Origin: Closterium sp. NIES-65
Lineage: Eukaryota; Streptophyta; Zygnematophyceae; Desmidiales; Closteriaceae
Reading direction: 5' to 3'
NCBI GenBank assembly: GCA_948144175.1
Contig: CANXME010000550.1
Location: forward strand, 1 to 64,000
Length of the DNA stretch: 64,000 bases
In this document: in pieces, positions 16,610-47,262 of the stretch
Layout of the letters: each line of letters begins with the position of its first letter
Position numbering within the stretch: the first letter of the stretch is position 1
Notes under the pieces: generated by a model
Database searches by the model: none
Told to the model about the DNA's origin: nothing
What the model saw: only the letters and a program-made list of their open reading frames with translations
Position numbers and translations under genes: made by a program

Positions 16610-17742
16610 ATGGCTACCCCCAGTGTCCTCACTTTTTACGCCGAGGGTAGGGCCATTGACTTTGAGGTCTGGGTAGACGACCTGCAGCTGTTCTTACAGT
16701 GCGATAGGGCAGACGGCCTCTCTCTCTTTGACCTTACCTCTGGCGCTTCCCCTGCCCCTGCTGCTGACGCTGACGCCACTGTTTGCTCCCAGTGGGCCAC
16801 GCGCGACGCTGCTGCACGTCTTGCTGTGCGTCGCCACCTCCGTACCTCCGAGCGTGCGCACTTTAGTCAGTACAAGAGTGCTCAGACCTTGTACGACGCT
16901 GTAGTCGCGCGCTACTCCTCCCCTGCCACTGCTGCACTCAGCCGTCTCATGCTACCGTACCTCTTCCCTAACCTTGCTGCCTTTCCCACCGTGGCAGACC
17001 TCATTACGCACCTCCGCACTAGTGACACTCGCTACCGCGCTGCACTCCCCGCAGACTTCTGCGCCACGAACCCCCCCCCATGTACATCACTCTGTACTTC
17101 CTAGTCACTCGCTTTCCTGACTCCCTTCGAGTAGTCAAGGACCACTTTCTCTCAGTCTGTCCCACCACACTCACTGTCGACCTCCTCAAGAAGGCCCTCC
17201 TAGCAGCAGAGAAGAGTATAGTTGCTGTAGGAGCCTCTCGAGGTGACCCGCGCACCCCCATCTTTGAGGGGTGTTCTCCTTCCCCCCTGCTGCCCTCTGT
17301 TGCCTCTGGTGCTACGGCCGACCTCCTTGGTCTTGAGTCGGTCGGTGCGGCGTCTGCCCCTAGCAGGAGACGCCGCCCTGGCAAGGGCAAGGGGGGCAAG
17401 GGAGCTGGAGGAGCGGGCGGTGGAGGTGGAGGTGGAGGCGGTGGGGGTAGTGGGGGTGGCGGTGGGAGTGGAGGTGGGGGTGGGGGGGTCGGTGGCGGCA
17501 GTGGAGGCGGAGGCGGCGGCGTCGGTGGCGGTGGGAGCGGAGGTGGCGGAGGAGGCGGCGGTGGAGGCAGCGGCGGAGGCGGCGGCAGTAGCGGAGGCGG
17601 CGGAGGCGGTGGGGGTGGCGGTGGAGCTGGTCGCGGGTCTTCGCAGAGGAGTGGCTCCGGTGGTGGCTCGCGCCAGCAGCAGCAGCGCGGTCGTGAGACC
17701 CTGTCCCCTCAGCAGCTCTGTGAGTGGTACACTGCACGCTAG
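16610..17742 (+). pseudogene. copia gag, frameshifted
   Basis: The start is MATPSVLTFYAEG. The N-terminal gag resembles copia UBN2-type capsid (DFEVWVDDLQLFL, later SQYKSAQTLYDAVVARYSSP). A frameshift occurs at a C-run near 17070-17078, and the next frame continues sensibly with MYITLYFLVTRFPDSLR. A long Gly-rich segment (17400-17635) follows, then SPQQLCEWYTAR and a TAG at 17740. After that stop the same frame gives a C/H cluster (CTYVLRTGDRAGEQCGGPHP) that may act as a nucleic-acid-binding finger in place of a standard CCHC knuckle. Confidence 0.8.
17400..17640. repeat. Gly-codon-rich simple repeat in copia gag
   Basis: GGN-rich sequence with short GGAGGCGGC and GGTGGAGGT units encodes poly-Gly with occasional Ser. 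Frames on the opposite strand are shadows. Confidence 0.8.
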
Positions 17743-19610
17743 CGGGGTGGGGGTTTTGGTCCGTGCACCTACGTCCTGCGCACCGGCGACCGTGCGGGTG
17801 AGCAGTGTGGGGGCCCGCACCCCACCCAGCGCTGCTTTGGCCGCCTGACGGACGCGTGGCGTCACCAGTTCCCGGAGGCCTAAGAGATTCCTCGCTAGGG
17901 CGAGCTGTCTAGGGCGGGTGTTGTCATATTTGATCTTGACTTTGATGCTATTCTCTCTGTCATGTATGCTGTGTCTAATAGTGATGAGGGTGACTGCTAC
18001 CGCTGTTTCCCGCCCGATCCGGGCATTGAGGCTGCTGCCCTAGGTGCTTGCGACGCTGCTGCTCTAGGTGCTAGTGTGTCTGCGTCCTCAGGTACTAGTG
18101 AGTCTGCGCTCTCAGGTACTACGTCGGCTTCGGCCTCCCTCACCTTCACCCTTGACTCTGGGGCGTCTCGCTCCTTCTCTCGGGACCGCACCACACTCAC
18201 GCCGCTCAGTCGGCCGGTTGCGATGTCTCTGGCTGACCCCTCCGGAGGTCCTGTACTGTCTCGTTTCTCCACAGTCCTCCCGTGTCCAGCGGCTCCCTCT
18301 GGCACCCTGTCTGGTCTTTACCTCCCCTCGTTCTCGACGAACCTGGTGAGTGGTGCTGACCTACAGGATGCAGGTGTCCACCAGTTCACTCCTGCGCGTC
18401 ACCGAGGGACACACTGTACGGAGGCTAGCACAGGCCGACACCTGGCTACGTTCACCCGTCAGCCGGGGTCGAGCCTGTACACTCTCACCACTGCGTCTCC
18501 TCCAGTTGCTGAGTCTGGTAGGGTAGCTGCGTCGGGTCAGGTGTTTGCTGCGACGTCCTGGTCTGGTCCTGAGTCTGCCCCCTGTTCGTGTCGTCTCTTG
18601 TCTTACGAGACTCTCCTCTGGCACCACCGCCTTGGCCACCCCTCTCTGCTTCGGCTCAGAGGCATAGCCTCTCATCTTCTTGTGTCTGGTCTCCCCCGGT
18701 CCCTCCCTCCCCTTCCTCAGGGCCCTGGCCCTGCCTGTGTCCCCTGTGTCGAGGGGCGCCAGCGTGCTGCCCCTCACTCCTCCCAGTTTCCTTCGACAGA
18801 GGCCCCGTTGCAGACGCTTCACATGGACGTGTGGGGCCCAGCCCGCGTCTGTAGACAGAGTCACGAGCGCTACTTCCTGCTCGTTGTTGACGACTACTCG
18901 CGTTACACCACAGTCTTCCCCTTGCGCACCTAGGGTGGTGTCACTGAGGTACTGATCGATTGGATCTGCGCAGCTCGTCTCCAGCTCAGGCAGAGCTTTG
19001 GCTCGGACTTCCCTGTTGTGCGTCTGCACTTGGACAGAGGCGGAGAGTTCTCCTCTGGCCTTCTGCGAGCCTACTGTCGTGCACGAGGCATCCGTTAGAC
19101 CTTCACGCTTCCGGACTCACCGTAGCAAAATGGGATTGCTGAGCGCCGCATTGGCATGGTCATGGACGTCGCTCGTACGTCTATGAAGCATGCGGCTGCC
19201 CCCCATTTTCTGTGGCCGTTTGTGATGAGGTACGCGGCGCATCAGATCAACCTCCACCCCAGAGTCTCCAGGCCGGAGACCTCCCCAGCCTTGCTGTGGA
19301 CGGGGAAGGTTGGCGATGCGTGAGCGTTTCGGGTCTGGGGATCTAGTGCGTTTGTCCGCGACTTGTCTGCGGACAAGCTGTCCCCTCGTGCTGCTCCTTG
19401 CGTCTTCCTGGGGTTCCCCCCTGACGCGCCTGGGTGGCAGTTCTACCACCCCACCTCTCGCCGTGTTCTGTCCTCCCAGGACGTCACGTTTGACGAGTCG
19501 GTCCCCTACTACCGCCTCTTCCCCTACCGCACTCCGTCCCTCCCCCCACCCCCACTCTTCCTTATACCAGGTCCCCCCCAGGTAGACCCCCTTCCCCCTC
19601 AGGGTCTTGC
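17743..19610 (+). pseudogene. copia protease and integrase region with in-frame stops
   Basis: Reading one frame: a retropepsin-like segment with LDSGAS, then GAG-pre-integrase LWHHRLGHPS with a CVPC pair, integrase HMDVWGP and VVDDYSRY, RLHLDRGGEF, and SP*QNGIAERR where copia integrases have SPQQNG. The frame is broken by TAA 17881, TAG 17896, TAG 18931, TAG 19096, TAG 19123 and TGA 19321. Downstream CVFLGFPPDAPGWQFYHP is the usual segment after the integrase core. The catalytic Asp, Asp and Glu are all still visible. Confidence 0.85.
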
Positions 19611-19675
19611 CCCTTCAGGTGTGTCCCACGTAGACGCAGTCGAGCCTGTCGAGGTCACTGTTGACTCTGGTGCTG

Positions 19676-20240
19676 CTGGGGGTGCTGAGCCTGGGGGTGC
19701 TGGACCTAGGGGTACGGAGTCTGGTGGTGCTGAGCCTCGGGGTGCTGCGTCTTGGGGTGCTGAGCCTGGGGGTGCTGAGCTTGGGGGTGCTGCGTCTGGG
19801 GGTGCTGAGACTGGGGGTGCTGAGCCTCGAGGTGCTGCGTCTTGGGGTGCTGAGCCTGGGGGTGCTACGCCTGGGGGTGCTGAGCGTGGAGGTGCTCCGC
19901 CTGGAGGTTCTCCGGGTGCTTCTTCTCGCCGGGAGCCACTCTCTCCACAGGAGCTGCGCGAGTGGTTTGCCCGGCGCTGGCGCCGTTCTGCTGGTGCTGG
20001 AGGTTCTTCGGGTGCTGAGGGTGCTGCGGTCGCGGGTCCCGGAGGTGCTCGTACTGAGAGTACTGGAGCTGCTGGGCCTGCGGGTTCGACTAGAGCTGGT
20101 GCTGCTGAGGGTATTGGTGCTGAGACTACTACTGGCGGTCCTGCTGGGGGTGCTCCTGGTGCTGCTGGAGGTTCTCGAGCTGCTGGAGGTTCTGCTGGGG
20201 CGGTTGCTCCTGCTGAGGTTACTGGTGCTGTCCCTGCTGC
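19676..20240. repeat. GGTGCT-rich 15-30-bp coding repeat between integrase and RT
   Basis: Repeated GGGGGTGCTGAGCCT-type units encode GGAEP/GGAAS motifs in the pol frame. This expands the hinge between integrase and reverse transcriptase. Confidence 0.75.
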
Positions 20241-20259
20241 TTCTGGCGTCGCCACGCGG

Positions 20260-22519
20260 CCTCGACCGTACTTTGTTCCACTCCTGCAGCAGGTTCTTGG
20301 TCTTCCACTCCACTGGTCCGCCTCCTACCTTAAAGTGTCCACAGCTTGTCCCGTCACAGTCACAGCTACAGCCTGCCTCCCCTTTGCCTGCTCCTTCTCC
20401 CTACGCTGGTCCTACTGGAGGTCTTACTGAGCGTCGTGAGCCTGCGTCTCGTCCTGCGTCGCCTGTTCGTGCTGCTCGCGCTAGTGGTCGCGGTCCTCGC
20501 CAGCGTCCTCTTCCTGTCCCTGGCATGCAACGGATGTCTCTGCGTCCGTCTACTGCTCCTCTGCGTGCCCCTTTGCCTTCCCCTCCTGAGTCCTCTCTTC
20601 CCGCTCTTGCCGACCCTGAGTCGGACTCTCTTCGTGCTGCCACTCCTGCTATCACGCGTCTCTTTGCTACTGTTGTCACTGACGCTTCCTTCGAGTCTAC
20701 TGCTGCGTCTGCCCTAGATGCTGAGCTCGTCGACTTGGCTGCTCACTGACGCCTAGACTACGCTGCTAGTCTTGTCGCTGAGTCTGAGTCTGTCTGTCCT
20801 CCGTCCGTCGGGGGTGAGTGTGCTCCTGGCACGGACGTCCTTGAGGACAGGCAGGAGGAGTTCCAGTGTCTGGCGGCTGCTTCACCTCATCTCGTGTCCG
20901 TAGTGCTTACCCCTGAGGGAGACCCGGATGCACTTGACATCCCGACTCCGCGCTCTTACACGGAGGCGATAGAGGGTCCCTACTCCTCTCAGTGGCAGGC
21001 AGCTATGGATGCAGAGATGGCTTCCTGGAAATCCACAGGCACCTACGTTGACGGTGTCCGCCCTCCTGGGGCGAACATCGTCAGTGGCATGTGGAGCTTC
21101 AGGGTGAAGCGGCCGCCGGTTTCTCCACCTGTCTTCGAGGCGCGTTACGTGGCTCGTGGTTTCAGCCAGCGGCAGGGAGTTTACTACTTTCAGACCTTCT
21201 CCCCCACCCCGAAGATGACCACTCTTCGGGTACTGCTGCACGTTGCTGCTCACCGTGACTACGAGCTGCACTCTCTTGACTTCAGCACAGCTTTCTTGCA
21301 GGGCAGCCTGCACGAGGAGATCTGGCTGCGTCGCCCACCTGGCTTCACTGGGTCTTTCCCTCTTGGTACCAAGTGGAGTCTCCGGCGTCCAGTCTACGGT
21401 CTCCACCAGGCGCCCTGTGAGTGGCACGACACACTGAGAACTACGCTTACGCCTCTTGGGTTTGCTCCTTCTACTGCCGACCCGTCGCTGTTTCTGCGCA
21501 CCGACACCTCTCTGCCGCCGTTCTACATCCTCGTGTACGTCGACGACTTGGTCTTTGCCACAGCTGACACTGCTGGACTCGCCTACGTGAAGTCCGAGCT
21601 GCAGAAGAGACACACGTGCACAGACCTGGGTGAACTGCGCAGCTACCTTGGCTTGCAGATCGCCCGGGACAGAGCACGCCGCACCATTACCCTGACTCAG
21701 TCACACATGGTGTAGCAGGTTCTTCAGCGCTTCGGCTTCACGTACTCCTCGCCTCAGGCCACTCCTCTGTCTACTCGCCACTCGCTCTCAGCTCTGCCTT
21801 CGGATGAGTCCGTAGAGTCGTGTGGCCCGTACCCAGAGCTTGTTGGCTGCCTCATGTACCTGATGACCTGCACACGACCTGACCTTGCATACCCTCTTAG
21901 CATTCTCGCATGCTATGTTGCTCCTGGGAGACACCGACCAGAGCACATGGCTGCAGCGAAGAGGGTGTTGCGCTACCTGTGTAATACGTCGGGCATGGGG
22001 CTAGTGCTTGGAGGGCGGAGTCCAGTGGTCCTCACTGAGCACGCGGACGCTTCTTGGGCTGACGACCAGGCTACGCAGCGGTCGTCACTGGGTTACACCT
22101 TCAGCCTTGGTTTCGGCTCTGTTTCGTGGCGGGCTACTCGCTCGTCTTCTGTCCTTGGCTCCAGTTGTGAGGCTGAGATCTACGCTGGGGCCATGGCTGC
22201 ACAGGAGTTTTGCTGGCTCACCTACCTGCTGACTGGCCTTGGAGAGCCGCCTCGTTCTCCTCCAGTCCTGTATGTAGACAACAAGGCCATGCTGGCCTTG
22301 TGTCGAGAGCAGCGACTGGAGCACAGAACAAAGCACATTGCTCTCCGCTACTTTCTTGCTTGTGAGCTACTGCAGCGTGGACAGTTGCGGCTTGCGTACG
22401 TGGCCTCTGAGGCCAACACTGCTGATGTCTTTATCAATGCACTTGCGCATTGTGATCATCAGCGCTTCTGCACTCAGCTGGGTCTTGTGCCCGTCTTGCC
22501 TCACTTGCTCTCCTCTTGA
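20260..22519 (+). pseudogene. copia reverse transcriptase and RNase H, broken
   Basis: After a frameshift near 20300 the pol frame resumes and carries RT: WQAAMDAEMASW, SFRVKRP, YVARGFSQRQGVYY, LHSLDFSTAFLQG, LRRPVYGLHQAPCEWH and YVDDLVFA with the catalytic Asp pair. TGA 20747 and TAG 21713 interrupt it. RNase H follows with TEHADASWADD, SCEAEIYAG and YVDNKAMLALC and ends at 22519. The family motifs are complete, so loss of function comes only from point changes and the frameshift. Confidence 0.9.
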
Positions 22520-27972: not shown

Positions 27973-30900
27973 ATGGCTTCCAGGGCTGGTGGATCCATAG
28001 GCCGAGGTGCAGGCAGGGCTCAGCGCAGCGCACCGGGATCTCCACCACGACCTATGCAGGGGCGAGTAGGGGATGGACCGGGAGGAGCCGGCGCGATCTT
28101 CGTTGGGGGGTTGCTTACCGTACCGGCGCCGACCTCTCGTCGCTCTTTCCGTTACGACGGCCCTCGACCCCCTCCTTCGGGGCAGACGCAGACGCAGCCG
28201 GAGAGCGGCAGTGAGGAGGAGGATGAGGAGGAGGATGGTGAGGGCGAGAAGGAGGAGGACACTGAGGGGAGCGGGGATGACAGCGAGGCGGCGTGGAACC
28301 CAGAGACGCATGGCGGTGGGGAGGGGGGAGATGATGATGATGAAGACCACGAGATGGATGGGTTGGAGCCAGAGGGGCGGGAGGAGGAGGTGGGAGAGGG
28401 TGGTGGAAGGGCGGCGACAGAGGCGGGATCACAGCATGTGCGTGAAGGGGGAGGGAGCGTGGGGGTTAAGGTGGGGGGGAGAAAGGCCGTGACCATTAGG
28501 GAGCCGAGGCAGAGGAAGAAGGCCAACAAGTTGAGGGAGCGGGCGTATCCCTGCACGTTCACTGGGGAGCCCTTGGGCGAGGGTGTGATCGCTCCCGAGT
28601 TCCTAGACGAGGACGGAGGGTCCGAGAGTAGTAAGGGGACTGGCAAGGGTAATAGGAAGCCGGGGTGGCAAGTAATGATGTTCGGACCGTTAGGGGCAGA
28701 CGATAAGCGTCAGTGCAAGATTTGCACAAACAGGATTTCGCGGAAGCAATCCACAACAACCCTGGGCGAGCGGCACTTTGCGAGCTTCCACACTGCGCAC
28801 ATGCATGTGTGGCATCACCGTTACCACACCCCATCCGTTCACTTGCCAGGGGAGACGTTTCCCCGTGGGGGCTACAAGGGAGTGCCGGATGGCTACGTAT
28901 ATCAGTGGCCACATGCCAAGACTTGGCCGCAGCTCGCCAAGGAGAAAGGGATGGCGATTGGTGGAGGTCATGGTTCAGGCGGGATGGAGCGGTGGATGAC
29001 AACCAAACTGACCTCGGTGCAGCTACGGCAGGCGATCACAAAGCTGGTGGTCACCTGCGACCTCCCCTTCCGCATCGTCGAGGCCGAGGCTGTAAGTGCC
29101 CCATCCCATCCCATGCATGATTGGGCAAGCATGTGGTTAGTGGACGGGTCTGTCCCTTTGTGTTTTGACTGTTTGCGCGTGGCCCAGTGCAGTGCTATAT
29201 TATTTTCATCCCATCCCCCTGACGTTTACTCCCCTCTCCCCCCTTGTCTCTACCCCTCTCCAGTTTCGTGAGCTACTCATCCTGCTAAACCGCAACTGCG
29301 CGCAGAAGAACTTCATCCCCTCGCGCTGGACGGTTTCCCGCGACACAGTGGTGTATGCGGCTGCCGCTCTTCAGTCAGCCATTGCGGAGATGCTGACGAA
29401 GGAGGGGGAGCTGGGGTGCAGGGTGTCGTTCACCATCGACATGTGGACGTCGCCCAACAACAGGGCGTGGCTAGTGGTAACAGGTCACTGGATCGACGAG
29501 AATTACCAGCTGCGCACAATGGTGTTTGAATTCCGCGAGATTCACGGGCGTCACACGGGCAAGCACATGGCGAGGGTGGTTGAGGAGACGGTGGTGCAGT
29601 GGGGGTTGGAGACGCGTTGTCTTGGGTTCACCTTAGACAACGCCTCCAGCAACACTGCCGCTTTCAGGTGGATGTCGGAGGAGGGTGGTGGCCAGTGCTT
29701 CTTCAGCTCGCGCATGCACTTACGGTACGAAAGGGAGTGTGCGATGAGGGAGTCTGGGTGCGTCGTTCCTGTGAACATGTTGTGGTTGTAGTACGGGCGG
29801 GTGGGCCTATGCGGCTTGAGAGTGGTAGTGTTTCTCGGGTCTATGCCAATGTGTACTCACACTTCCCTTTCTCTCCGCCATTAATGTTTTGTGATGTGCG
29901 CAGATGCCTGGCACACGTGATCAACCTTGCTGTGAAGGCAGCACTCGCTGTGACCGCCATCCGCAAGTTGCTGAAGATTCTGAGAGAGATGGCGTCGTGG
30001 ATAGGCTTCTCGCCGCAGCGCTCAGGGAAGTTCTTGGGCCTTCAGCGGACCCTGAACGCGCAGGGCAACCCCGCCAAACCGAAGCCGGCATTGAAGCTGG
30101 TGCAGGACAGTCCCACACGCTGGGGGTCGACCCACGACATGGTCGAGCGAGCTGGGGTTCTGCAGGAACCCATCTCTGTCTTCTTTGCCCAGACACAGGT
30201 GTGTGTGTGTGTGCCAGGTGTTGTGTATGCGGTTTTATGTGTTGGTATGTCGGTCGGGGTGTTTTGTTCTGGGACTTGCACCACTGTTGACCATGCTTGA
30301 CTAAACTTATCGGACCTCCAACAACCTCAACCACCCCACTTTCCACCCTAACACCCGCCCACCCATACGTTCTACCCGACAGGGCGTGTCGAAGGCTGAC
30401 AAGGCGAAGATGGACACCTTGCGCCTGACGGACGCAGACTCGGAGACTCTGCATTCTGTCAAGACCTTCCTCAGCCCATTCGCCAAAGTCTCAAAGGCCG
30501 CGGAGGGAGCGGCGTACCCTACAGTGGCGATGGTCCTGCCGTACTACAACGGCCTGATCGACGCTATGGAGTCGCGCCTTGCCAAGGGGCCATTGGCTAC
30601 GCTGAAGCCGATGATTGAGGCGGCGCTGGGTCTCTTGAAGAAGTATGAACTGATGTCAAGCAACGAGTTGTGGATCGCGACCTTCCTGGACCCTTCCATG
30701 AAGGCGGCGTGGGTCGACGACGCGCACTGGGAGACGCTGCATCCCGATACCGACCGGAGGGCGAGGCCTCGTCCCTTGTCAGGCGAGGTGATCCAGCTGG
30801 TTCGCGAGCGCGTGGCCGAGTACCAGGCCCGGGCTGCAGCGATTGCCCCTCGGCCGACCTTACTTGCCCCAGTGACGGAGGAGGAGGAGGGAGACGCGGC

Positions 30901-31450
30901 GGATGACGACGAAGACGCCGAGTTTCTCCCTAGTCGCCGACGCCTTGCGGCGCGTCTGTCGGCGAGCCAGGAGGCGGGGAGGGGTGGGATGGTGCAGGAT
31001 GACGAGGTTGGCAGGTACTTATCTGAGAGGGTGCGGTGCGACGTGTCAGCGTTGGAGTATTGGCGCAGCACCACCAACATGCAGACGCTGAGGCGCATGG
31101 CCCAGGATTATCTTGCCATCCCTGCCACGTCCGCGTCGAGCGAGCGCGTGTTCTCCCTCGGCCGCAACCTCATTTCCTGGAAGCGGCACCGCCTAGCCTC
31201 TCAGAGGACGCGAGCTTCCATGATTCTCAGATCATGGTACACCTCACACCCTGGACAGAGGATAGGCGAGGGCCGCCGTGCAAAAGGCGAGGCACCACCA
31301 GAGTTCGCCATTGAAGGCAAGGGGGAGGAGGAGGACGACGAGTGGGAGGAGGAGGAGGGGGAGGAGGAGGAGCAGGAGGGGGTGGGTGCTGGCGACACCT
31401 CTGACGCGGAGCATGCTGTTGTTGGTAGTAGCAGTGGTGTGCAGGCGTAG
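27973..31450 (+). CDS. hAT-family transposase, four exons, about 980 residues
   Basis: Exons 27973-29091, 29264-29724, 29904-30198, 30383-31450; the lengths sum to 2943 nt with all phases kept (donors GTAAGT, GTACGA, GTGTGT, GTCCGT-free). An acidic, low-complexity N-terminus is followed by a BED-type zinc finger near residues 248-272 (CKIC, then HFASFH). The RNase-H-like core has DMWTSP (about 432) and LDNASSN (about 498), HLRCLAHVINLAV across the second intron, and near the C-terminus the hATC dimerisation region with LAIPATSASSERVFS, whose Glu is the third catalytic residue. Cut-and-paste transposase acting on the element's TIRs. No disabling change is seen. Confidence 0.92.
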
Positions 31451-37213: not shown

Positions 37214-37928
37214 CTGATGGTAAAGCAAGCGAAGTATATTATGGGTGGAAATAAATGAAGACAACTTGCGCCTCATGGCAAGCATGCAAATGTGTACACA
37301 TTCAGAAGCAGGAGAAAAGGATATAGAGTACACAATGTTTGTGTTGGTGGAAAGGCACAGCAGGATACAACTATGACCTGAAACAGCTGTGCATGCACAG
37401 TGCTTAAAACAGCATACTCCATCGCATAATGTCTTCACTGTCTGCATTTGAACAAATTGATTTTGTGAAGGAAAGTCTGTAGGCCAGCAGCGTTGGCAAG
37501 ACATTCTGTTTTTTTATCTGTAGCGAAAAGGAGAGTTCAGGGATGGCTCAGATTTGACCAACGATGATGGCAGCTTGAGAATGGCTGGTCTGATGACTTT
37601 ATTTGGGTATGATCAAACTGATGGCAGCCTATATATCGTGGCTTTGGGTCTTTTCGCTTCGCCATGAGCTTGATTTCATAGAATTTCACTCTCATTTGAA
37701 CATGAGGAACAGCCAGAACCTCCCTTTCCCATGTATCTTGTCGCTTGGACATTGCAAGACCCTATCATGAGGCTAATGTGCAGAGGTAGGTGGGAGACCC
37801 CAGTACCAAGTAGATGGTGAGGCTTCTTCCATACTGATCCCAGTTAGCTACCCATGGCGGTCTAGGATGCTGCCTTTGTTGTGAATGTCGTGCATTCTGT
37901 GCGTTTTCTTTTCCAAAGAGAGAAAGCA

Positions 37929-38290
37929 AAGACCGATCTAAGAGAACATTGACGCATCATAGATGCAAAAAATGGACTACCCATGCTCGCATCCCAGTGC
38001 ATCTTCTCTCCCTACACACAAAACTTAAGGCCGCGCTCAGTATGTGGCAAACCTTTCGGGGACTCCTAAAGAGGGAAATTGAAGACCAATTTATGAACAC
38101 ATTGACGCATCAAATATGCAGAAGATGGACTGCTCATGCTCACAATCCAATGCGTCTCTCCCCTCACATACAGCTTAAGGCTGTGCTCAAGTATGTGGAA
38201 AACCTTTAGGGGACAGGGAAACGGAAGACCAATTTAATAGCACATTGACTCATCAAAGACGCAAAAGATGGGCTACTCATGCTTGAAATT
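37929..38290. repeat. tandem repeat, about 150-bp unit, 2.5 copies
   Basis: Units start near 37929, 38082 and 38225 with AAGACC, then CATTGACGCATCA, GATGG(A/G)CTAC and CTTAAGGC. The copies are about 80 percent alike by eye, and the third is partial. No ORF of interest. Confidence 0.75.
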
Positions 38291-39308
38291 TATGCCTTTC
38301 ACTACAACATGACCAAGGGCAGGTTCCCTTGTGACTTGTGCCAAACTGATTTTCACCGACCAGCCTGCACTACTTGAACTGTTCTGATGTCAGACTGCTT
38401 GAATCGTTTTGGTCCTCAGTGAGAAGGTATATGCCTGGAAAACCAGGCTGCTTCAATCCCGTGGCCCATGACAAACCCCACTACTGCTGCCGGACAAGGG
38501 CACAAGACACCCGACACATATTATCCCGCAATGTGTCAAACTGGGAGCTCAATATTGCATTCAATAACAAGTACAGGCCTGAGGTGACAATTGAGTCAAG
38601 CAGAGCCAGCAAACCTGCTCTGCCGGCTGACCCCGAGTTATCGAGCTGGCCCGACGAGCGGAGACCTGGCTTGCCGGCCCGTTGAACTTATTCTTTCACC
38701 AGCCGGCCACAAGCTGGTCGAACTCAGCTGGCCCGAACTGGGCCAGAATATGCTTGACAATCTAGGCTGGTTGTCTGGCAGACCAAGATGGCCCTTGAGT
38801 CCTGTGGGATACATATAAACCTTGGATTGAGATGGTTGGAGCTCATTCATATATTTCCACCTTTTTTGAAACACGGGTCCAATATGACAATTGAGTCAAG
38901 ACAAGCTGGCAATCCGAGTATCAACTGGCTGAAATCAAACCGATCTCGACAAGCCAAGACCCTCTCTTACCCAGATGAGAAATTCGAAGCAAATCCAAAG
39001 CTAAAATGCAAGATTCACCCGAAGCAGTAAAATACCAAAACCGTGTAAGCAATGCCTGCTTGTCTACAATGGACAAGCCACGAGCTTGGTCAGCTGCCCG
39101 ACTGGCTCGTCAGCGCACCTGATCATGGCAATTTGAACCAAGCCAGCTCGTCTTAGACCTATGCTCGTGCCTAGTGTTGACGGAATAGGAGTGTTGGCCC
39201 CGCCCTCGCTTGGGCAACGTTGACGACTTGGTCCGATGTACGGGAGAAGCAGCCAACCGCTCACAATAGGAGAGCTGCTCAACCGTCTTCGTCGAGCTGC
39301 AGGGGACC
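38291..39308. other. no gene recognised
   Basis: Short similar blocks around ACAATTGAGTCAAG occur near 38588 and 38886. Otherwise I see no feature before the gypsy element. Confidence 0.45.
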
Positions 39309-39849
39309 TGTCGCATGACTCTTGCGAATGAGTGCACAAAAGTTCATGAGACAGCTCCTAAGGTGAGTATGGTTGGGTAAATCGTAAGGGAAGTAGTATT
39401 GTTGTATTGTTGTTATAAATTGTACTGTAGAGTGTACGGGTAAGGGGGGGGGTTTTGTGGTGATATTAGAATTGTGGCAGGGATAGAAGAATCGAGGCGG
39501 GGCCACTCGAAATGAGGACGGGACGACGGCTGACCTGGCAAGGGCCACCGGTGAAGCGGAAAGGGGACAGGGGTGACGAGGCTTGCCCGAGTCGCATGCA
39601 TGGAAAGGAGCCCAAGGGTTGGGCGGTGCGAGAGGTAGTTGGCAGACCCCAAGGCACAGATTCACGAGGGGTGACAGGAAGCCAAAACTAGCACAGCAAG
39701 GACACCAATTCACTTTTGTTTGTCTTCTCGTAATTGTGGGAAAGCTTGTGATTCAGTTGTGATCCGTCGTCAAGCTGAGCAACTGCTAGATCCACGTCGG
39801 AGAAGCCAAACTAGTGCGGCCATTTGTGCCTAGGGAAGGAAACTAGCCA
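39309..39849 (+). repeat. 5' LTR of the gypsy element
   Basis: 541 bp, TG...CA ends, matching the 3' copy throughout including a nine-G run. It should hold the promoter, but I do not see an unambiguous TATA box. Confidence 0.95.
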
Positions 39850-39882
39850 CTCGCGTCGAGGGCTTCTTTACAAACAAAAGTC

Positions 39883-42800
39883 ATGGCGGGCATGTCACTA
39901 CGTAGTGGTGCCAAGCTGTCCGGAATGGGAGAACCACCGGAGAAGGAAGGAGTTCCGGCGGGGAACGAAGTGGAAGGAAGCCCGGGGGAGAGATCCGATC
40001 CCGAGCGAGTAACTGCCCGGAATGACGCCGAGGACAAGGGCCGGCGGGAAGAACGACGCGGAGGTGGTATGACCCCCCGCGGATCGGGACGATTTGCGAT
40101 GCGCGCCGAGAGAACCCAGGGAGAGCTGTCGCCGTCAGAAGAACAGGCGACGGTGGCGGGGAGGGGCATCGCTGCGCCAGTTGCCAGATCAGAAGGAGGA
40201 AGGGGAGGGCAGATGACGCCATCCGGAAGCGGGAATTCAAGACGCTCGCTGTGGGAGGAGGGGTCACGCTACCGATACACCAGCCTCCCTAAGGTGGAGG
40301 TTCCGAGTCGCTTCAGTGGAGATCAAGAGTCGGGGCCGAGAGTGAAGACCTACGCGATGCACGTGCGGAACGAGAAATACGGATGGGAGATGGACGGCCT
40401 GGATTTACGGCACTTCTTCAGATCTTTGGGGAACACGCTGGCGGGGGAGGCGGAAGCGTTTTACCTGGAGATTAGGGACCCGCTGCTGCAGGAGGAAGAG
40501 CGAGACGAGGAGGGCCGACTGCTACGGGACGAAGAAGGGAAGCCCATCCGCTTACGGGACCCGACGGAGCGCTTCCTGCAAGAATTGGCGGCGCACTTCC
40601 CCACGCAAACGCCGGCCAGGATGAGGGAGTTCGACCAGTTGAGACGAGGTTCACGAGAGTCTCTCCTGGGCTATTATCGGCGAGTGCATCAACTGGCGGA
40701 GGACATCGGCTGCAGCGAACCGCGTATTATAGTAGCCAAATTTTTGGACGGCCTGGCCGGAGAGCTAGCACGGACCGTGAGGGATCGGACATACGACCTG
40801 GGTCCCAACGCCACGCTGCGACAGGCGTATGAAATCGCATGGCGACACGAGCAGTCCCTGAGCCTCTATGACCTGGGGAGGAAGACCGAGAAGCCGCCCA
40901 GGGAGAGAGAGCGCAGGGGAGTCGGCTGGGGAGGGGCCCTACTGGCTGGGGAGGAGGCGGAAGAGGAAGACCAGGAAAGGGATCGAGCCTCTAGGAGTCG
41001 GACGCGGAAGCCTCGCAGCGCGGCCCACTCTCCTGGAGAAGAGCCGGTCTGCTACAAGTGCCGGGAGCCGGGGCACTTCAAGAGGGACTGCCCCAAGCTG
41101 CAAACCTGCTCCTATTGCCAGAGAAAGGGGCATCAGGCTGACAATTGCTACACTAAGCAACGCGAGCAGAAGGGTCGCGGGGGAAGGAGAGGAAGGATCG
41201 AGGAGCTGGAAGAGGAGCTGAGGAGGCTTCGGGCAGAGGAAGAGGACACGATGGCAGAAGAGGAAAAGCCAGTCCACGTCGCAAGGTACGCGGAAGAGTC
41301 CGACGAAGAAGGACCGGAGCCCATCTTCATGGCGGCAAACCCGGGGAGGGAGAGGGAAGACCTGGGCCTGCGCAGTGGTGCCGCAGACGGCCGAAGGGGC
41401 ACGGCGACAGTAAGGAGGGGACCGCGGGCAACAGTAGACGAGGCCGTAGAGGAGGCGGCAGGAGCAGCGGAAGAAGCAGTGCAGCGGGCGGTGGCCCGAA
41501 CGGGGCCCAGGAGGCACCCGTTTGAGAGGATGGCGGCTCGTCCTTGCGTGGTGGAAGCGCTGGAGGGGACGGTAGCAGTGGAAGGGAAATACCCGGGCAC
41601 AACAATCATTGATACCGGGGCGTCCCAAGTGCTGGTGGGAAGGCGACTGGCCGAAAGGCTGGGACTGCATCGGGCCGAGAATGTGACGCCGGAAGGAGTA
41701 AGGATTCAAACGGCGGAAGGAGGGGATGGAACATGGCTACCGAGAACCATCCGACCCCAAGAAGTGGTGTTGGCGCCAGGAAGGGCCGAAGAGACCAGAA
41801 TCCGAGTACACTGTCTGGTATCCGACTCGGAAGACTATGACCTCTTGCTCGGTATGGAGCTCCTCTACAAGGTGGGGGCAGTGGTGGATACGTGGGCGGA
41901 GAGGGTCACCTACCAGCCACTGTATTGGGATTCAGAAGCGACCCGTGCTGGAGAGGAGGGAGCAGTCCTACCGGCGCGCTTTCTGCGAGGAAGGGTGGAG
42001 TATCGAGAGCCGCATCACCAGCGGGTGCCCGAGCAGCGATGGGAAGATGCGGGAGTGTACCTGGAAAGGGCAGCCAGTCGACGAAGAATGGAGGAAGCGG
42101 CTGGGGCGAGGGTGGAGGAACTGAGGGAGGCCAGAGGACTGGCCGAACCAGCCTATGACTTTGAAACTTTCAATCGGCCGGTACGGCTGGTGGAATTGTT
42201 CGGGGGTGTCGGCCCGGGGCTGGCCGCCTGTGTCCGTCTGGGCATGGTGGTGGAGCGATGGACCTACGTAGAGAAGAACCCAGAGGTCAGGAGGATGGCG
42301 ATGCATCACGCGATGATACTGCACGAGCGATTCCCAGACAAGCTATCCAGAGACGTAGTCGAGCAGGCCCGGTTGGAGGCGGAAAGGATGAGCGATGTGA
42401 CGGAGGTGACCGAGGAGGTGGTAGCAAGCTGGGGGCAAGTGGACCTGCTGGTGGCGGGATGGGAGTGTCAAGGCCTGTCCAGAGCAGGAAGAGGGAGAGG
42501 ACTAGAAGACCCCAGGACGGCTCTATTCCAAGAATTAATTCGGGTGATGAAGCTAATAAAGCGAAGGCAAGGCCCGTTCTCGTACGTGGTGGAGAATCTT
42601 GACGTGGCGGATGATGAAAGGAGCTTAGTGAAGGAGGCGCACCGGGCGGTCACACGGGAGCTGGGCCATGGGGTAGCATGGGACGCAGCACAGATGGGTG
42701 CTCGGGCACATCGGATCCGGCGGTATTGGCAGAACATGGTCCCAGAACCAGTGCTGCGGGACCAGTTGGGTCGCATGCGCCGGCCATTACCCCTGCTGGT

Positions 42801-45800
42801 GCAGGATATCCTGGAACCGGGGAGGAGGGTGGCCCCAGTGGTCAGCCCGGACATAAGGACGCAGTACCCGTGTAACGAGGTGGGGGCACCACGGCAGGCC
42901 TGGCCAACTCTGGTGTCGACACCGGGGAGCTATGCCTTTAGCATGCAAGGGGATCAACCGGGACCGGGAATGGTACAGGTGCTGGCGACGGGGGAGTGGG
43001 AGGAGCCACTAGCAGTGGAACGTGAGAGAGCCATGGGCTATCTGCGAAACGCGACGGCGGCGGAAGGGGTGTCAGAAGAAGTGAGGCGGCAGGCGCTGGG
43101 AGGAGCTATTGACCAGCATGCCTTGGGATGGTTGCTGTATCGCGCTGAAAAGAGGCATGAAACGCTGAGAGCGCAGCTGCTCATGCTGCAGAGGTACAGG
43201 GACTTCATAGAGATGACGGACACGGAACCGGAGATGGCGATGGAGGTGGCGGCTCAATGGAGGCAATCGGCAGTATATCAGAGGGAGGAGAGAGCGCGAG
43301 AAGAGGACCAGTTCAACCGTCAAGGGATGGTATTGATGGCAAAGGGAGCAAGGGCGGAGAGAAGCAAAGAGAACACTGAAGGAGAAGTAGAAGGAAGGGA
43401 GGAGGCACCGGTGGAGGGAGCACAGGACAGAGCCGGGGAGTGGCAAATGGGGGACGGTCTTAACGAGGGACAGAAGGAAAAGATGAGGAGAGTGTTGGGG
43501 GCAGCCAGAGGGGCATTTGCATTTTCTGTGAAGGAGTTGGGCAAGTGTAATCGGGCAGTGATGGACATAGAGCTGCAGAGCCAAGAGCCAGTGTACCAGA
43601 GGCGGAGACGGATGAGTCCTGGAGACCGAGACATTGCGGAGGAGAAGTGCAAAGAGCTGTTAGAAGCGGGATTGATCCGGGAATCCACCTCCGAGTACGC
43701 GGCAGCAACCGTGGTGGCAGCTCGCAAGGACCTAACAGGAGAGACGATATCAAGGCGGATGTGCGGTGATTACAGGGGATTGAATAGGGTGACCAAGAGC
43801 GACCGCTATCCCATGCCGGTGGTTGAAGAGCTCTTTGATGAGTTGTCGAAAGGACGGGTATATACCACGCTGGACCTGAGACAAGGCTTCAATCAGATAC
43901 CTATCCGAGAAGCAGATAAGCACAAGACGGCCTTTCATGGTCCCGACAAACTTTATGAATGGAATTACATGCCCTTCGGTTTGAAGAATGCGTCAGCCCG
44001 GTTCCAGAGGGTCATGGATCAGGTGCTTCAGGAATTGCCGTGCGCCCTCTGCTACATAGATGATGTGATCATCTACAGCCCTGATGGGGAGCAGCATGTG
44101 GAGGATGTGGCCAAAACACTGAAGGCCATAGAGGCGGCTGGGCTGACCTGCCATCCCGGCAAGTGCACCTTTGGGGTACGAACGGTAGGGTATCTCGGGT
44201 TCCAAGTGGGAGAGGGCGGAATGACGGTCCAGCAAGCCAAGGTGGAAGTAGTGGACCGCCTCCAGCAGCCGACCGACCGAAGCATGCTGAGAGCGCAGCT
44301 AGGGTTCTTAAACTACTACAGGAAATTCATCCCAAACTTCAGCAGGACGGCGAAACCACTGAATTTGCTGCTGAGGGAGGATGTCGCCTGGGAGTGGAAG
44401 GAGGAGCAAGAAGCTGCCTGGAGGGTGCTGAAGGAGGCAGTAAAAACCGCCCCTGTACTGCGGCTGCCAAGACAAGATGAACCCTTCCTGCTATACACTG
44501 ACTGGAGTAGCGGGGGGTTGGGAGCGGTGCTGTGCCAATTGGAAGAGGGAGTGGAGCGGGTGGTGGCATACGCCAGTCGTTCCTGCAGCCCAGCAGAAAG
44601 CAACTACAGCTCCTACGAAGGAGAGGGGCTGGCAGCTGTGTGGGCAGTGGAGTTGTTTAGACCCTACCTCCAAGGGAGAAAGTTCACCCTCATCACAGAT
44701 CACCAGCCCCTCTTGTGGCTGATGACTAATCAAACGCTGAGGGGAAGGAATGCAAGATGGGCAATGCGGTTGCAAGAATTCGATTTCGAAGTCAGACACC
44801 GCCCAGGGAAGACGCTCCAGCATGTCGACGGCCTGTCGAGGCAGGGGCCAGCGGTACCGAGTAAGGAAGGAGTGACCCCCGAGGCAGCACTGGTATACTC
44901 GGCAGTAGCCGCGGAGAAAGAGGGGTGGAGGAGGAGAAGGGATGCTGAGAAGGGGTGCGCAGAGATTTGGGAGGATAAACCAGTACTAGACTGGGTGCGA
45001 GGAGTGGGACCAGAGGGGCTGGAAGTGCCGGAAAGGGTGAGAGCTAGGGGCGTGCACTACAGGTGGCAGGATGACCAGCTGCAGTTGGTAACGGAGGATG
45101 GATGGAGAATCGTACCCAGACCTGGAGAGAGGAGAGATTTGATACTGCAGATCCATACGAAGTTCGGGCACTACGCCGTGGAGAGGACCACCCAGCTGCT
45201 GCAAACCATGTATTGGTGGCCAGGAATGAGAGGGCAGGTAAAAAGGGAGGTAGCAGAATGCGAGCCCTGCAGTAGGAATCGGGCGGTGCTGGAAAGGAGT
45301 AAGGCAGAACTACAGTCGCTGCCTATTGGGAGCATCGGCTACCGATGGTCGTTGGACTTGGCGGGGGAGCTGCCCTTGTCCAGGAGAGGAAAGCAGTTTA
45401 TCCTGGTGATGATAGAGCACACTAGCAAATGGATTGAAGTGGCGGCTCTGTCGCGTAAGACAGCCGCATCGGTGGCAGAGGCTTTCGTGCAGCAGGTGCT
45501 ATGCAGGTTTGGGGCGTGTGGAGAAGTATTGACTGATCAAGGGACAGAGTTCGCGGGAGAGTTTGAGGCATTACTGAAGGAAGTAGGTATAGTGCACAGA
45601 AGGACCTCACGGTATCATCCACAAGCGGACGGGCTGACAGAGAGAATGATTCAGACGTTGAAGAAAGGCCTGAGGAAGTATTGTGAGGAAGAAGAGAGGC
45701 GGGATTGGGACGTGAAATTACCGTGGGTGGCAGCAGGGTACCGTTTCAGCAAACAGCAAGCGTTGAAAAGCTACTCTCCTTACCAGCTGCTGTTCGGAAA

Positions 45801-46326
45801 GGAGCCCCTGCTACCCGTGGGAGCTCCTAAGGTCTTAAGAGAGGCGGTAGGAGACGAAGACCCCAACACCTGGGCGGCTGTCGCAGCGGCCAGGGCGAAG
45901 TATCTCCGGTCGATCATGCCGGCTGCACTGGAGAACCTGGAGGTAGCACAGATGAGAGATGCTCGCCGGTACAGTCAGAGGAGACAAGGGGGGAAGGAAG
46001 TCGTGAGAAAGGACAGAGGGGTGCAAGTAGGGGATGAGGTGTACCTGAGAGAGCGGCGGAAGGACACACTGGAGTGCGGGCTGAGCAAAACGAAGTGGAA
46101 AGTGCGAGAGCTACGGGAATCAGGGGTGGTTCTTTTGGAAGACTCTCAGGGGAAGAGGGTGAAGGACCATATCTCCAATACTGCTAAGGCGACAGCATCA
46201 CGACCTGTGGGCAGGGGCGCAGAACAGGTCGTGAGGGGGCATGACAGGGGTCCAGAGAGTATCATTACCTATAAGAGACGAGGAGGAGGTGTGCACAAGG
46301 AAGCGGGGAAGCAGGGAGAGAAGTAA
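39883..46326 (+). CDS. gag-PR-C5 methyltransferase-RT-RNaseH-IN polyprotein, 2147 aa
   Basis: Domains in order: gag capsid about 134-335; two CCHC knuckles 390-403 and 409-422; aspartic protease with DTGAS at 577 and LLLGMELL; C5-cytosine methyltransferase about 767-1085; RT about 1220-1420 with MPFGLKNASARFQ and YIDD 1391-1394; RNase H with TDWSSG (Asp 1540) and TDHQPLLWL; integrase with an HHCC zinc region about 1756-1795 and catalytic Asp 1825, Asp 1885 and Glu 1920. No chromodomain is evident after the integrase. Methyltransferase motifs: I LFGGVGPG (772-779), IV WECQGLSRAGRG with Cys 862, VI VENL (Glu 904), VIII AHRIRRYWQN (942-951), X-like ERERAMGYL. Motif VIII and the spacing resemble DNMT3/DRM-type enzymes more than DNMT1. 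The start ATG is the first in frame after the LTR. No stop or frameshift interrupts it. Confidence 0.95.
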   Translation: MAGMSLRSGAKLSGMGEPPEKEGVPAGNEVEGSPGERSDPERVTARNDAEDKGRREERRGGGMTPRGSGRFAMRAERTQGELSPSEEQATVAGRGIAAPVARSEGGRGGQMTPSGSGNSRRSLWEEGSRYRYTSLPKVEVPSRFSGDQESGPRVKTYAMHVRNEKYGWEMDGLDLRHFFRSLGNTLAGEAEAFYLEIRDPLLQEEERDEEGRLLRDEEGKPIRLRDPTERFLQELAAHFPTQTPARMREFDQLRRGSRESLLGYYRRVHQLAEDIGCSEPRIIVAKFLDGLAGELARTVRDRTYDLGPNATLRQAYEIAWRHEQSLSLYDLGRKTEKPPRERERRGVGWGGALLAGEEAEEEDQERDRASRSRTRKPRSAAHSPGEEPVCYKCREPGHFKRDCPKLQTCSYCQRKGHQADNCYTKQREQKGRGGRRGRIEELEEELRRLRAEEEDTMAEEEKPVHVARYAEESDEEGPEPIFMAANPGREREDLGLRSGAADGRRGTATVRRGPRATVDEAVEEAAGAAEEAVQRAVARTGPRRHPFERMAARPCVVEALEGTVAVEGKYPGTTIIDTGASQVLVGRRLAERLGLHRAENVTPEGVRIQTAEGGDGTWLPRTIRPQEVVLAPGRAEETRIRVHCLVSDSEDYDLLLGMELLYKVGAVVDTWAERVTYQPLYWDSEATRAGEEGAVLPARFLRGRVEYREPHHQRVPEQRWEDAGVYLERAASRRRMEEAAGARVEELREARGLAEPAYDFETFNRPVRLVELFGGVGPGLAACVRLGMVVERWTYVEKNPEVRRMAMHHAMILHERFPDKLSRDVVEQARLEAERMSDVTEVTEEVVASWGQVDLLVAGWECQGLSRAGRGRGLEDPRTALFQELIRVMKLIKRRQGPFSYVVENLDVADDERSLVKEAHRAVTRELGHGVAWDAAQMGARAHRIRRYWQNMVPEPVLRDQLGRMRRPLPLLVQDILEPGRRVAPVVSPDIRTQYPCNEVGAPRQAWPTLVSTPGSYAFSMQGDQPGPGMVQVLATGEWEEPLAVERERAMGYLRNATAAEGVSEEVRRQALGGAIDQHALGWLLYRAEKRHETLRAQLLMLQRYRDFIEMTDTEPEMAMEVAAQWRQSAVYQREERAREEDQFNRQGMVLMAKGARAERSKENTEGEVEGREEAPVEGAQDRAGEWQMGDGLNEGQKEKMRRVLGAARGAFAFSVKELGKCNRAVMDIELQSQEPVYQRRRRMSPGDRDIAEEKCKELLEAGLIRESTSEYAAATVVAARKDLTGETISRRMCGDYRGLNRVTKSDRYPMPVVEELFDELSKGRVYTTLDLRQGFNQIPIREADKHKTAFHGPDKLYEWNYMPFGLKNASARFQRVMDQVLQELPCALCYIDDVIIYSPDGEQHVEDVAKTLKAIEAAGLTCHPGKCTFGVRTVGYLGFQVGEGGMTVQQAKVEVVDRLQQPTDRSMLRAQLGFLNYYRKFIPNFSRTAKPLNLLLREDVAWEWKEEQEAAWRVLKEAVKTAPVLRLPRQDEPFLLYTDWSSGGLGAVLCQLEEGVERVVAYASRSCSPAESNYSSYEGEGLAAVWAVELFRPYLQGRKFTLITDHQPLLWLMTNQTLRGRNARWAMRLQEFDFEVRHRPGKTLQHVDGLSRQGPAVPSKEGVTPEAALVYSAVAAEKEGWRRRRDAEKGCAEIWEDKPVLDWVRGVGPEGLEVPERVRARGVHYRWQDDQLQLVTEDGWRIVPRPGERRDLILQIHTKFGHYAVERTTQLLQTMYWWPGMRGQVKREVAECEPCSRNRAVLERSKAELQSLPIGSIGYRWSLDLAGELPLSRRGKQFILVMIEHTSKWIEVAALSRKTAASVAEAFVQQVLCRFGACGEVLTDQGTEFAGEFEALLKEVGIVHRRTSRYHPQADGLTERMIQTLKKGLRKYCEEEERRDWDVKLPWVAAGYRFSKQQALKSYSPYQLLFGKEPLLPVGAPKVLREAVGDEDPNTWAAVAAARAKYLRSIMPAALENLEVAQMRDARRYSQRRQGGKEVVRKDRGVQVGDEVYLRERRKDTLECGLSKTKWKVRELRESGVVLLEDSQGKRVKDHISNTAKATASRPVGRGAEQVVRGHDRGPESIITYKRRGGGVHKEAGKQGEK

Positions 46327-46391: not shown

Positions 46392-46932
46392 TGTCGCATG
46401 ACTCTTGCGAATGAGTGCACAAAAGTTCATGAGACAGCTCCTAAGGTGAGTATGGTTGGGTAAATCGTAAGGGAAGTAGTATTGTTGTATTGTTGTTATA
46501 AATTGTACTGTAGAGTGTACGGGTAAGGGGGGGGGTTTTGTGGTGATATTAGAATTGTGGCAGGGATAGAAGAATCGAGGCGGGGCCACTCGAAATGAGG
46601 ACGGGACGACGGCTGACCTGGCAAGGGCCACCGGTGAAGCGGAAAGGGGACAGGGGTGACGAGGCTTGCCCGAGTCGCATGCATGGAAAGGAGCCCAAGG
46701 GTTGGGCGGTGCGAGAGGTAGTTGGCAGACCCCAAGGCACAGATTCACGAGGGGTGACAGGAAGCCAAAACTAGCACAGCAAGGACACCAATTCACTTTT
46801 GTTTGTCTTCTCGTAATTGTGGGAAAGCTTGTGATTCAGTTGTGATCCGTCGTCAAGCTGAGCAACTGCTAGATCCACGTCGGAGAAGCCAAACTAGTGC
46901 GGCCATTTGTGCCTAGGGAAGGAAACTAGCCA
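46392..46932 (+). repeat. 3' LTR of the gypsy element
   Basis: 541 bp, preceded by the purine-rich CTGGGAGAGGGTG as the likely polypurine tract region. It reads identical to the 5' LTR. Confidence 0.95.
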
Positions 46933-47164
46933 CTAGCCGCTGTGGCGCTGCTGTCGGCCAGGGAGCTCGACAGCTGCAGCTGATTGGGCTAGGCGACGGG
47001 TGGGCCGTCGACCAGGACGGGCAGTTCGACCGGGAGGCCGACGCAGCTCTCCGTCGACCTGACAAGTGAGGAATGGTCGACGAGGGGAACACGACGTCAA
47101 CCGCTCACAATTCTGGTCGACGGAAGGGGTCCGTCGACCAGGGGGTAGCTTGACAGGAGCTGTG

Positions 47165-47262
47165 GTCAACTAGAGGCACCTGGTGGTCGACCAGAGGCAC
47201 CTGGTGGTTGACCGGAGGCACCTGGTGGTCGATCAGAGCAGTTGGTGGTCGACCAGGTAACC
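47165..47262. repeat. 21-24-bp tandem repeat rich in GTCGACC
   Basis: About four copies of AGGCACCTGGTGGTCGACC with drift. The surrounding 46940-47570 is dense in GTCGACC words. This may be a fragment of another repeat family; no ORF is recognisable. Confidence 0.65.

What the first reader, a model, noticed from the sequence alone, without database searches (positions are those of the whole stretch)
42172..43140. C5 DNA methyltransferase built into a Ty3/gypsy polyprotein
Seen: a continuous 2147-residue ORF holds, between protease and RT, motifs of C5-cytosine methyltransferases: LFGGVGPG, Cys 862 in WECQGLS, VENL, and AHRIRRYWQN. Known: charophytes and dinoflagellates have been reported to carry DNMT genes captured by retrotransposons, with evidence that such enzymes can methylate CG de novo. 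Inference: this is such an element, of DNMT3/DRM-like ancestry, and may methylate its own cDNA or host DNA. This could hide the new copy by pre-methylation or mark it for a host maintenance enzyme.
Basis: partly seen in the sequence, partly recalled or inferred. Interest (0 to 1): 0.95.

Follow-up and report, generated by a model that had tools for sequence, protein, structure and literature searches.

The report
Retrotransposon carrying its own DNA methylase
A young, intact jumping gene of what looks like the green alga Closterium carries a complete DNA-methylating enzyme inside its single long protein, and related elements in other green algae and a liverwort carry the same kind of enzyme, so it looks like a long-held part of how this group of elements lives rather than a one-off theft.

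Summary
Residues 764-1095 of the intact 2147-residue gag-pol ORF form a complete, unpermuted C5-cytosine methyltransferase domain between protease and RT. Profile search, a confident model (pLDDT 94.4) and trees place it nearest DNMT3; DNMT3-like enzymes on viral contigs are about as near, so the donor is unresolved. The element has two identical 541-bp LTRs and intact PR, RT, RNase H and integrase motifs.

RT and MTase histories agree. The domain changed place once: before RT here, between RNase H and integrase in others. The nearest lineage outside carries a Dam-like domain in the pre-RT slot. Motif IV reads ECQ-type (Glu) in 42 of 82 domains.

DNMT-bearing Gypsy elements are published from Klebsormidium, and a review states that methylase-bearing Gypsy/DIRS elements occur in green algae; what is added is the clade and its architectures. 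Most likely the enzyme methylates the element's own cDNA (inferred; untested; no CpG depletion). Novelty: new variant of a known kind.

The parts
39309..39849 (+). 5' LTR, 541 bp, TG...CA
   Evidence: identical to 46392-46932 over 541/541 bases; shared repeat 39308-39851, 544 bases
46392..46932 (+). 3' LTR, 541 bp
   Evidence: identical to the 5' LTR; no target-site duplication seen
39883..46326 (+). single gag-pol ORF, 2147 aa
41050..41148 (+). gag zinc knuckles, two CCHC motifs (residues 390-422); Pfam reports one stretch (389-405)
41569..41865 (+). aspartic protease (residues 563-661, DTGAS at 577)
42172..43167 (+). C5-cytosine methyltransferase domain, DNMT3-like (residues 764-1095)
42466..42468 (+). 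codon of the predicted catalytic Cys862 in motif IV (WECQGLS)
43756..44208 (+). reverse transcriptase (residues 1292-1442; YIDD at 1391)
44476..44781 (+). RNase H (residues 1532-1633)
45124..45282 (+). integrase zinc-binding domain H2C2 (residues 1748-1800)
45340..45621 (+). integrase core by Pfam (residues 1820-1913); the motif read as carrying the third catalytic acid, ADGLTER at 1915, lies just beyond

Best explanation
This is a recently inserted, apparently autonomous Ty3/Gypsy LTR retrotransposon, most likely of Closterium, whose Pol carries a DNMT3-type C5 DNA methyltransferase between protease and RT. It belongs to a clade of Gypsy elements, green-lineage wherever the host of an MTase-bearing member is named, that acquired the domain once and moved it once between two places in Pol. 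SHOWN: domain, predicted fold, intact motifs, one MTase clade, RT/MTase agreement, one change of position. INFERRED: single capture; the polyprotein is cut by its protease, the MTase travels with RT in the particle, and it methylates the double-stranded cDNA (CG context guessed from DNMT3) before integration, so the copy arrives already marked. That mark would let it pass as host DNA, or quieten it at once so that it does little damage; a host maintenance enzyme could then propagate it.
Against: No activity, expression or methylation data. Motif IV has Glu in place of Pro; whether ECQ enzymes are active is unknown to me. CpG observed/expected is 0.76 in the ORF and 0.74 in the LTR against a median of 0.66 (range 0.41-0.87) for 88 other overlapping stretches of the window: no sign of long-term CpG methylation and deamination. 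The Klebsormidium enzyme did nothing in yeast (inconclusive). Among named chlorophyte rows only P0108 (Haematococcus) has a full-length domain with an intact motif IV; P0127 (Pleodorina) reads CWH there, and P0048, P0094, P0106, P0115-P0118, P0137, P0141 and P0145 give partial or split matches, from decay or from truncated gene models. Two captures of closely related MTases are not excluded. No DNA of relatives was available, so no dN/dS.
Confidence: 0.65

Rival explanations
1. The domain is retained but does not act on the element's cDNA: it works as a DNA- or RNA-binding part of the particle, or methylates RNA, and its chemistry is weak or lost (ECQ).
For: Glu stands in place of the usual Pro of motif IV in 42 of 82 domains, with at least 7 changes between E and P on a FastTree tree (75 rows with E or P); 79 of 80 viral relatives read PCQ; negative yeast test of the Klebsormidium enzyme, called inconclusive; partial or decayed copies in chlorophytes.
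Against: The Cys, the Glu-Asn of motif VI and the Arg, Trp and Asn of motif VIII are kept in 79-82 of 82 domains, which simple binding would not require; the best fold matches are DNA enzymes, and DNMT2, the tRNA enzyme, scores far lower in the PDB profile search.
Confidence: 0.2
2. The enzyme acts mainly in trans on host chromatin, changing the host methylome or the target site rather than the element's own cDNA.
For: Discussed as a possibility for Symbiodinium. Many relatives have a C-terminal PHD finger (50 post-RNase H and 7 pre-RT rows of 117), a chromatin-reader type of domain.
Against: This element has no PHD finger; being inside Pol puts the domain with RT. The published Klebsormidium methylome resembles that of land plants.
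Confidence: 0.2
3. About origin (not exclusive of the others): two independent captures of related MTases, one before RT and one after RNase H, from the same kind of donor (cellular DNMT3, an algal ChloroDNMT, or a viral enzyme).
For: Both data sets allow pre-RT and post-RNase H groups to be sisters (RT data do not reject the pre-RT rows as one clade, p-AU 0.52); DNMT3-like enzymes occur on viral contigs.
Against: All retrotransposon MTases sampled form one clade apart from DNMT3A, viral-contig and bacterial enzymes (100/99*), inside one RT clade; one move is simpler. Algal DNMT3 and ChloroDNMT genes were not sampled.
Confidence: 0.22
4. Artefact: chimeric assembly or chance resemblance.
For: No target-site duplication at the ends.
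Against: Same architecture in other Closterium assemblies (P0002, 98% identical over the MTase region, RT incomplete; P0003) and in metagenome contigs; one uninterrupted frame; profile and fold support.
Confidence: 0.01

Closest known systems
KnitGypsy-Dnmt3 of Klebsormidium nitens (de Mendoza et al. 2018, PMC5890265; parts 1-4 of 7 read)
   Same: Gypsy LTR element of a charophyte alga with a DNMT3-related C5 MTase inside the Pol ORF; conserved key residues.
   Different: Its legend describes repeats arranged as in DIRS; here there are plain direct LTRs and no second repeat was found. Its sequence was not obtained, so shared descent is untested; the authors treat it as an independent acquisition in the K. 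nitens lineage.
SymbioDIRS-Dnmt3 and SymbioLINE-Dnmt of Symbiodinium (same paper)
   Same: Retrotransposon-encoded C5 MTase; the two DIRS-borne DNMT3s tested methylate CG in yeast.
   Different: DIRS and LINE elements, not Gypsy; sequences not compared here.
DNMT3A/DNMT3B
   Same: Best sequence and fold match; canonical motif order; AHRxRxxW.N-type motif VIII and a C-terminal E.E...G....T.......R..LLG block.
   Different: ECQ instead of PCN; about 23-26% identity in the fold alignments; no PWWP/ADD; sits inside a Gypsy polyprotein.
Retrotransposons with Dam-type adenine MTase (DIRS elements, cited in PMC5890265 and PMC6338049)
   Same: Retrotransposon carrying a DNA MTase.
   Different: Different methylase superfamily and, in DIRS, another element class; but P0144, the lineage next to this clade, has a Dam-like domain in the pre-RT slot.

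Membership tests
Ty3/Gypsy LTR retrotransposon | PR, RT, RNase H, then integrase in one Pol, with LTRs | tested here: met
Ty3/Gypsy LTR retrotransposon | RT groups with Gypsy RTs | tested here: inconclusive
   trees hold only hits of its own searches (Gypsy-like by domain order); no Copia or Bel-Pao RT was included as a contrast
Ty3/Gypsy LTR retrotransposon | target-site duplication and tRNA primer-binding site next to the 5' LTR | tested here: not met
   flanks differ, and no TGG-type site directly follows the LTR; ends may be recombined or priming may be unusual
C5-cytosine methyltransferase (PF00145) | significant profile match and motifs I, IV, VI, VIII, IX, X in order | tested here: met
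   (motif numbering recalled)
DNMT3 | closest to DNMT3 by profile, fold and tree | tested here: met
   viral-contig DNMT3-like enzymes are about as close; one DNMT3 (human 3A) in the tree
DNMT3 | PCN motif IV | tested here: not met
   ECQ here; first residue E in 42 and P in 33 of 82. PCN: the DNMT3A chain; as the norm of DNMT3, recalled
DNMT3 | PWWP and ADD domains | tested here: not met
   none in the Pfam scan of the ORF at E up to 1; a passage of PMC12344493 says that some DNMT3s lack identifiable companion domains
DNMT3 | de novo CG methylation | not testable with these tools
   needs an enzyme assay
DRM | permuted motif order | tested here: not met
   motif order here is canonical; the best stretch of the DRM chains covers profile positions 2-133 or 3-132 at the C-terminal part of the chain
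DRM | fold nearest to DRM | tested here: inconclusive
   no DRM chain among the 50 rows shown, which excludes nothing
KnitGypsy-Dnmt3 | DIRS-like split repeats | tested here: not met
KnitGypsy-Dnmt3 | common descent of RT and MTase with the K. nitens element | not tested
   no hit named as K. nitens was listed (one search listed 120 of 853) and supplements were closed

The most novel reading that the evidence does not exclude
DNA methylation is a core, ancestral step in the replication of this Gypsy lineage. The slot between protease and RT held a DNA methyltransferase before the green clade arose (Dam-like in the sister lineage P0144, DNMT3-like C5 in the green clade), and the C5 enzyme has stayed with its element, with one move within Pol, since early in green-lineage history. 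The selected function would be marking of the new cDNA as such, whatever the base.
Probability: 0.28. Interest if true: 0.85.

Novelty: new variant of a known kind. Interest (0 to 1): 0.58.

Why it matters
Transposons are usually the victims of cytosine methylation, so an element lineage that carries its own de novo type methyltransferase is a standing puzzle. The published view is of separate acquisitions in dinoflagellates and in Klebsormidium. A clade reaching Closterium, Marchantia and several chlorophytes turns this into a broad phenomenon with many natural experiments: two positions in Pol, ECQ and PCQ active sites, with and without a PHD finger, intact and decayed copies. The copy here is young and intact, so whether new insertions arrive methylated can be tested directly with long reads. 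[quoted passage not shown]

Tried and rejected
DIRS-like repeat arrangement: looked for a second repeat around the 3' LTR and found none. CpG depletion as a trace of self-methylation: not seen. tRNA primer site and target-site duplication: not found; a 12-nt LTR segment (ACTTTTGTTTGT, 39712) whose reverse complement lies just before the ATG could hint at self-priming, but this is one match found after looking, with no chance level computed. Pre-RT as the ancestral position: the RT trees drew the pre-RT rows as paraphyletic, but holding them together gave a likelihood 1.06 higher, p-AU 0.52, so the direction of the move is NOT resolved. Single-sequence model of the Dam-like domain of P0144: pLDDT 38.7, of no use; no PDB match. 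dN/dS: not possible, no DNA of relatives. Fold search against viral models and plain Foldseek: not answered. P0028 as a DIRS element: its N-terminal part looks DIRS-like by eye (recalled); Pfam gave only a sub-threshold MTase match.

Rows dropped: one search used 97 of 117 rows (most Cordylochernes and the Haematococcus P0116-P0118 left out); one search used 99 of 119 (20 post-RNase H rows left out) and, of retrotransposon proteins, only single-hit domains of 255 or more residues; one search used 43 of 99; one search used 49 of 117 plus P0138, whose RT match is in two pieces; one search counted single-hit domains of 300 or more residues (82, near-duplicates kept); mix proteins from three searches, two of which used the MTase; one search listed 120 of 853 hits. 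After checking the draft I lowered the main confidence (0.72 to 0.65), the novel case (0.30 to 0.28) and interest (0.62 to 0.58), and raised two rivals slightly, because many named chlorophyte copies are partial or decayed and a review already states that methylase-bearing Gypsy/DIRS elements occur in green algae.
Full report
OBSERVATION. The ORF at 39883-46326 (+) is 2147 codons without a stop. Pfam finds zinc knuckle, aspartic protease, RT, RNase H and integrase (H2C2 and rve) in Gypsy order, with PF00145 between protease and RT (E 9.6e-7, residues 834-905). The quoted motifs are at the stated residues and Cys862 is codon 42466-42468. Two 541-bp repeats, TG...CA, flank it at 39309-39849 and 46392-46932 and are identical. 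PR DTGAS, RT YIDD, RNase H and integrase motifs are present. The copy is therefore recent and apparently complete. No target-site duplication and no TGG-type primer site were found.

HOST. The nearest proteins are from Closterium: P0002 (NIES-54), 98% identical over the MTase region, and P0063 (NIES-64), whose aligned parts differ from this ORF at very few residues by eye. I take it to be a Closterium genome; no independent host gene was tested. The own-genome search did not complete.

ACTIVE SITE. Among 82 full-length domains (near-duplicates kept) the Cys is present in 80, the motif VI Glu and Asn in 80 each, Arg944 in 81, Arg946 in 79, and Trp949, Asn951, Gly1073 and Asp1077 in all. The residue before the Cys, Pro in DNMT3A and HhaI and in 79 of 80 viral relatives, is Glu in 42, Pro in 33 and something else in 7, with at least 7 changes between E and P on a FastTree tree built without that column. 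I know of no tested ECQ enzyme (recalled).

THE CLADE. The RT/RNase H search, which does not use the MTase, gave 853 hits at E <= 1e-60, of which 120 were listed. Of these 120, 83 carry the MTase and 37 do not. Of the 37, three fall in the clade (P0088, P0093, P0134), one is its sister (P0144), 14 lie outside, and 19 Cordylochernes rows were not put in the tree. In the 97-row tree all 79 MTase-bearing rows fall in one 82-row clade (99*); in the 50-row careful tree, which adds Marchantia, 100/98*. Named members: Closterium; Marchantia polymorpha P0138 (full-length domain, PCQ); Haematococcus P0108 (full-length, ECQ) and P0115-P0118 (partial); Pleodorina P0127 (full-length but CWH at motif IV); Tetrabaena P0106 and P0145, and Tetraselmis P0094, P0137 and P0141 (partial; the name Tetraselmis is read from a JGI code, recalled); and, by MTase only, Cymbomonas P0048 (split match). 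Of these, P0094, P0106 and P0116-P0118 were not placed in an RT tree; their place rests on the search and the MTase match. Most other listed members are unnamed metagenome proteins, so the host range beyond these names is unknown.

TWO ARCHITECTURES. Of 117 proteins with a usable RT, 22 have the MTase before RT (7 with a PHD finger) and 60 between RNase H and integrase (50 with PHD). The post-RNase H rows form one clade by RT (23 rows, 100/100*) and by MTase (15 rows including P0028 of unknown architecture, 98/86*). One change of position suffices. Which place came first is open: RT data do not reject the pre-RT group as a clade (p-AU 0.52), which is also how the MTase tree draws it (91/91). 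RT and MTase distances agree (Mantel r 0.68, 63 elements, 0 of 2000), as expected if the two have travelled together. For this element the MTase differs more than RT-RNase H: 53% against 72% identity to P0003, 43% against 60% to P0006.

THE SISTER LINEAGE. P0144 (1532 aa, 21 member sequences, host unknown), next to the clade when rooted on eight other Gypsy rows (99/99*), has no C5 MTase but has a Dam-family match (PF05869, 3.6e-7, 30.5 bits against a cut-off of 28.1; PHROG DNA methyltransferase 3.1e-7) at residues 363-468, between its protease and RT, and a PHD finger before integrase. Its motif reads NPDF, which departs from the usual pattern (recalled); its model failed and no PDB chain matched. 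If real, the slot held a DNA methylase of either kind.

HOW IT MOST LIKELY WORKS. Shown: an intact Pol with a complete predicted MTase whose catalytic residues are kept in most full-length relatives. Inferred: release by the protease, packaging with RT, methylation of double-stranded cDNA, integration of a marked copy. Against a simple reading, CpG is not depleted (ORF 0.76, LTR 0.74, 88 other stretches of the window median 0.66), so either methylation does not persist, or these cytosines seldom mutate in transmitted copies, or the context is not CG. De Mendoza et al. found CG activity for DIRS-borne DNMT3s, none (called inconclusive) for the Klebsormidium Gypsy enzyme, and discuss cDNA methylation as disguise or protection (PMC5890265, parts 1-4 of 7 read).

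WHAT IS KNOWN. The only named green host of a DNMT-bearing Gypsy element that I found in print is Klebsormidium nitens (PMC5890265). A 2025 survey refers to that report, naming LTR Copia and DIRS families (passage of PMC12344493). [quoted passage not shown] no sequences in what I saw). So occurrence in green algae is in print in general terms. My searches for more specific reports in other green algae or liverworts listed none that I could recognise (for most listed papers I saw only title and start of abstract); most subscription papers and bioRxiv are not held. The Closterium genome paper, as held, does not contain the words LTR or retrotransposon (search within PMC10407611). The element is thus a new variant of a known kind; the clade with its two architectures, the ECQ site and the Dam-like neighbour are what I did not find described.

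Noticed in passing
P0144 residues 363-468 (relative): The Gypsy-type lineage next to the C5-MTase clade has a Dam-family domain in the same pre-RT slot and a PHD finger before integrase; motif reads NPDF.
   Followed up: partly
P0028 (relative): An MTase nested in the post-RNase H group follows a stretch that looks like a DIRS-type RNase H by eye (recalled, no Pfam match): possible transfer of the module between retrotransposon classes.
   Followed up: partly
39712-39723 and the stretch just before the ATG at 39883: A 12-nt LTR segment is the reverse complement of a stretch between LTR and ORF, where no TGG-type primer site is seen; possible self-priming.
   Followed up: partly
window 39294-39308 and 46933-46960: No target-site duplication flanks the identical LTRs, despite their apparent youth.
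   Followed up: partly
window about 17080-22444 (+): Broken Copia-type element (gag_pre-integrs, RVT_2; tblastn to Closterium proteins P0005 and P0024).
   Followed up: no
window 30305-31447 (+): hAT transposase dimerisation domain (E 8.5e-13).
   Followed up: no
window 47000-47260: Cluster of short GTCGACC-containing repeats, some about 21 bp apart, just past the 3' LTR.
   Followed up: no
window 37915-38300: Three diverged 90-nt direct repeats about 150 bp apart upstream of the element.
   Followed up: no
L001 8001-8876, L002 1856-2902 (viral contigs): C5 MTases on viral contigs, DNMT3-like in motif VIII (clearest in L001), that group with DNMT3A rather than with bacterial restriction-type enzymes; bears on where DNMT3 came from.
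   Followed up: partly
P0127 (Pleodorina), P0145 and P0106 (Tetrabaena): MTase domains of volvocine copies look decayed or partial (CWH at motif IV in P0127; partial matches in the others).
   Followed up: no
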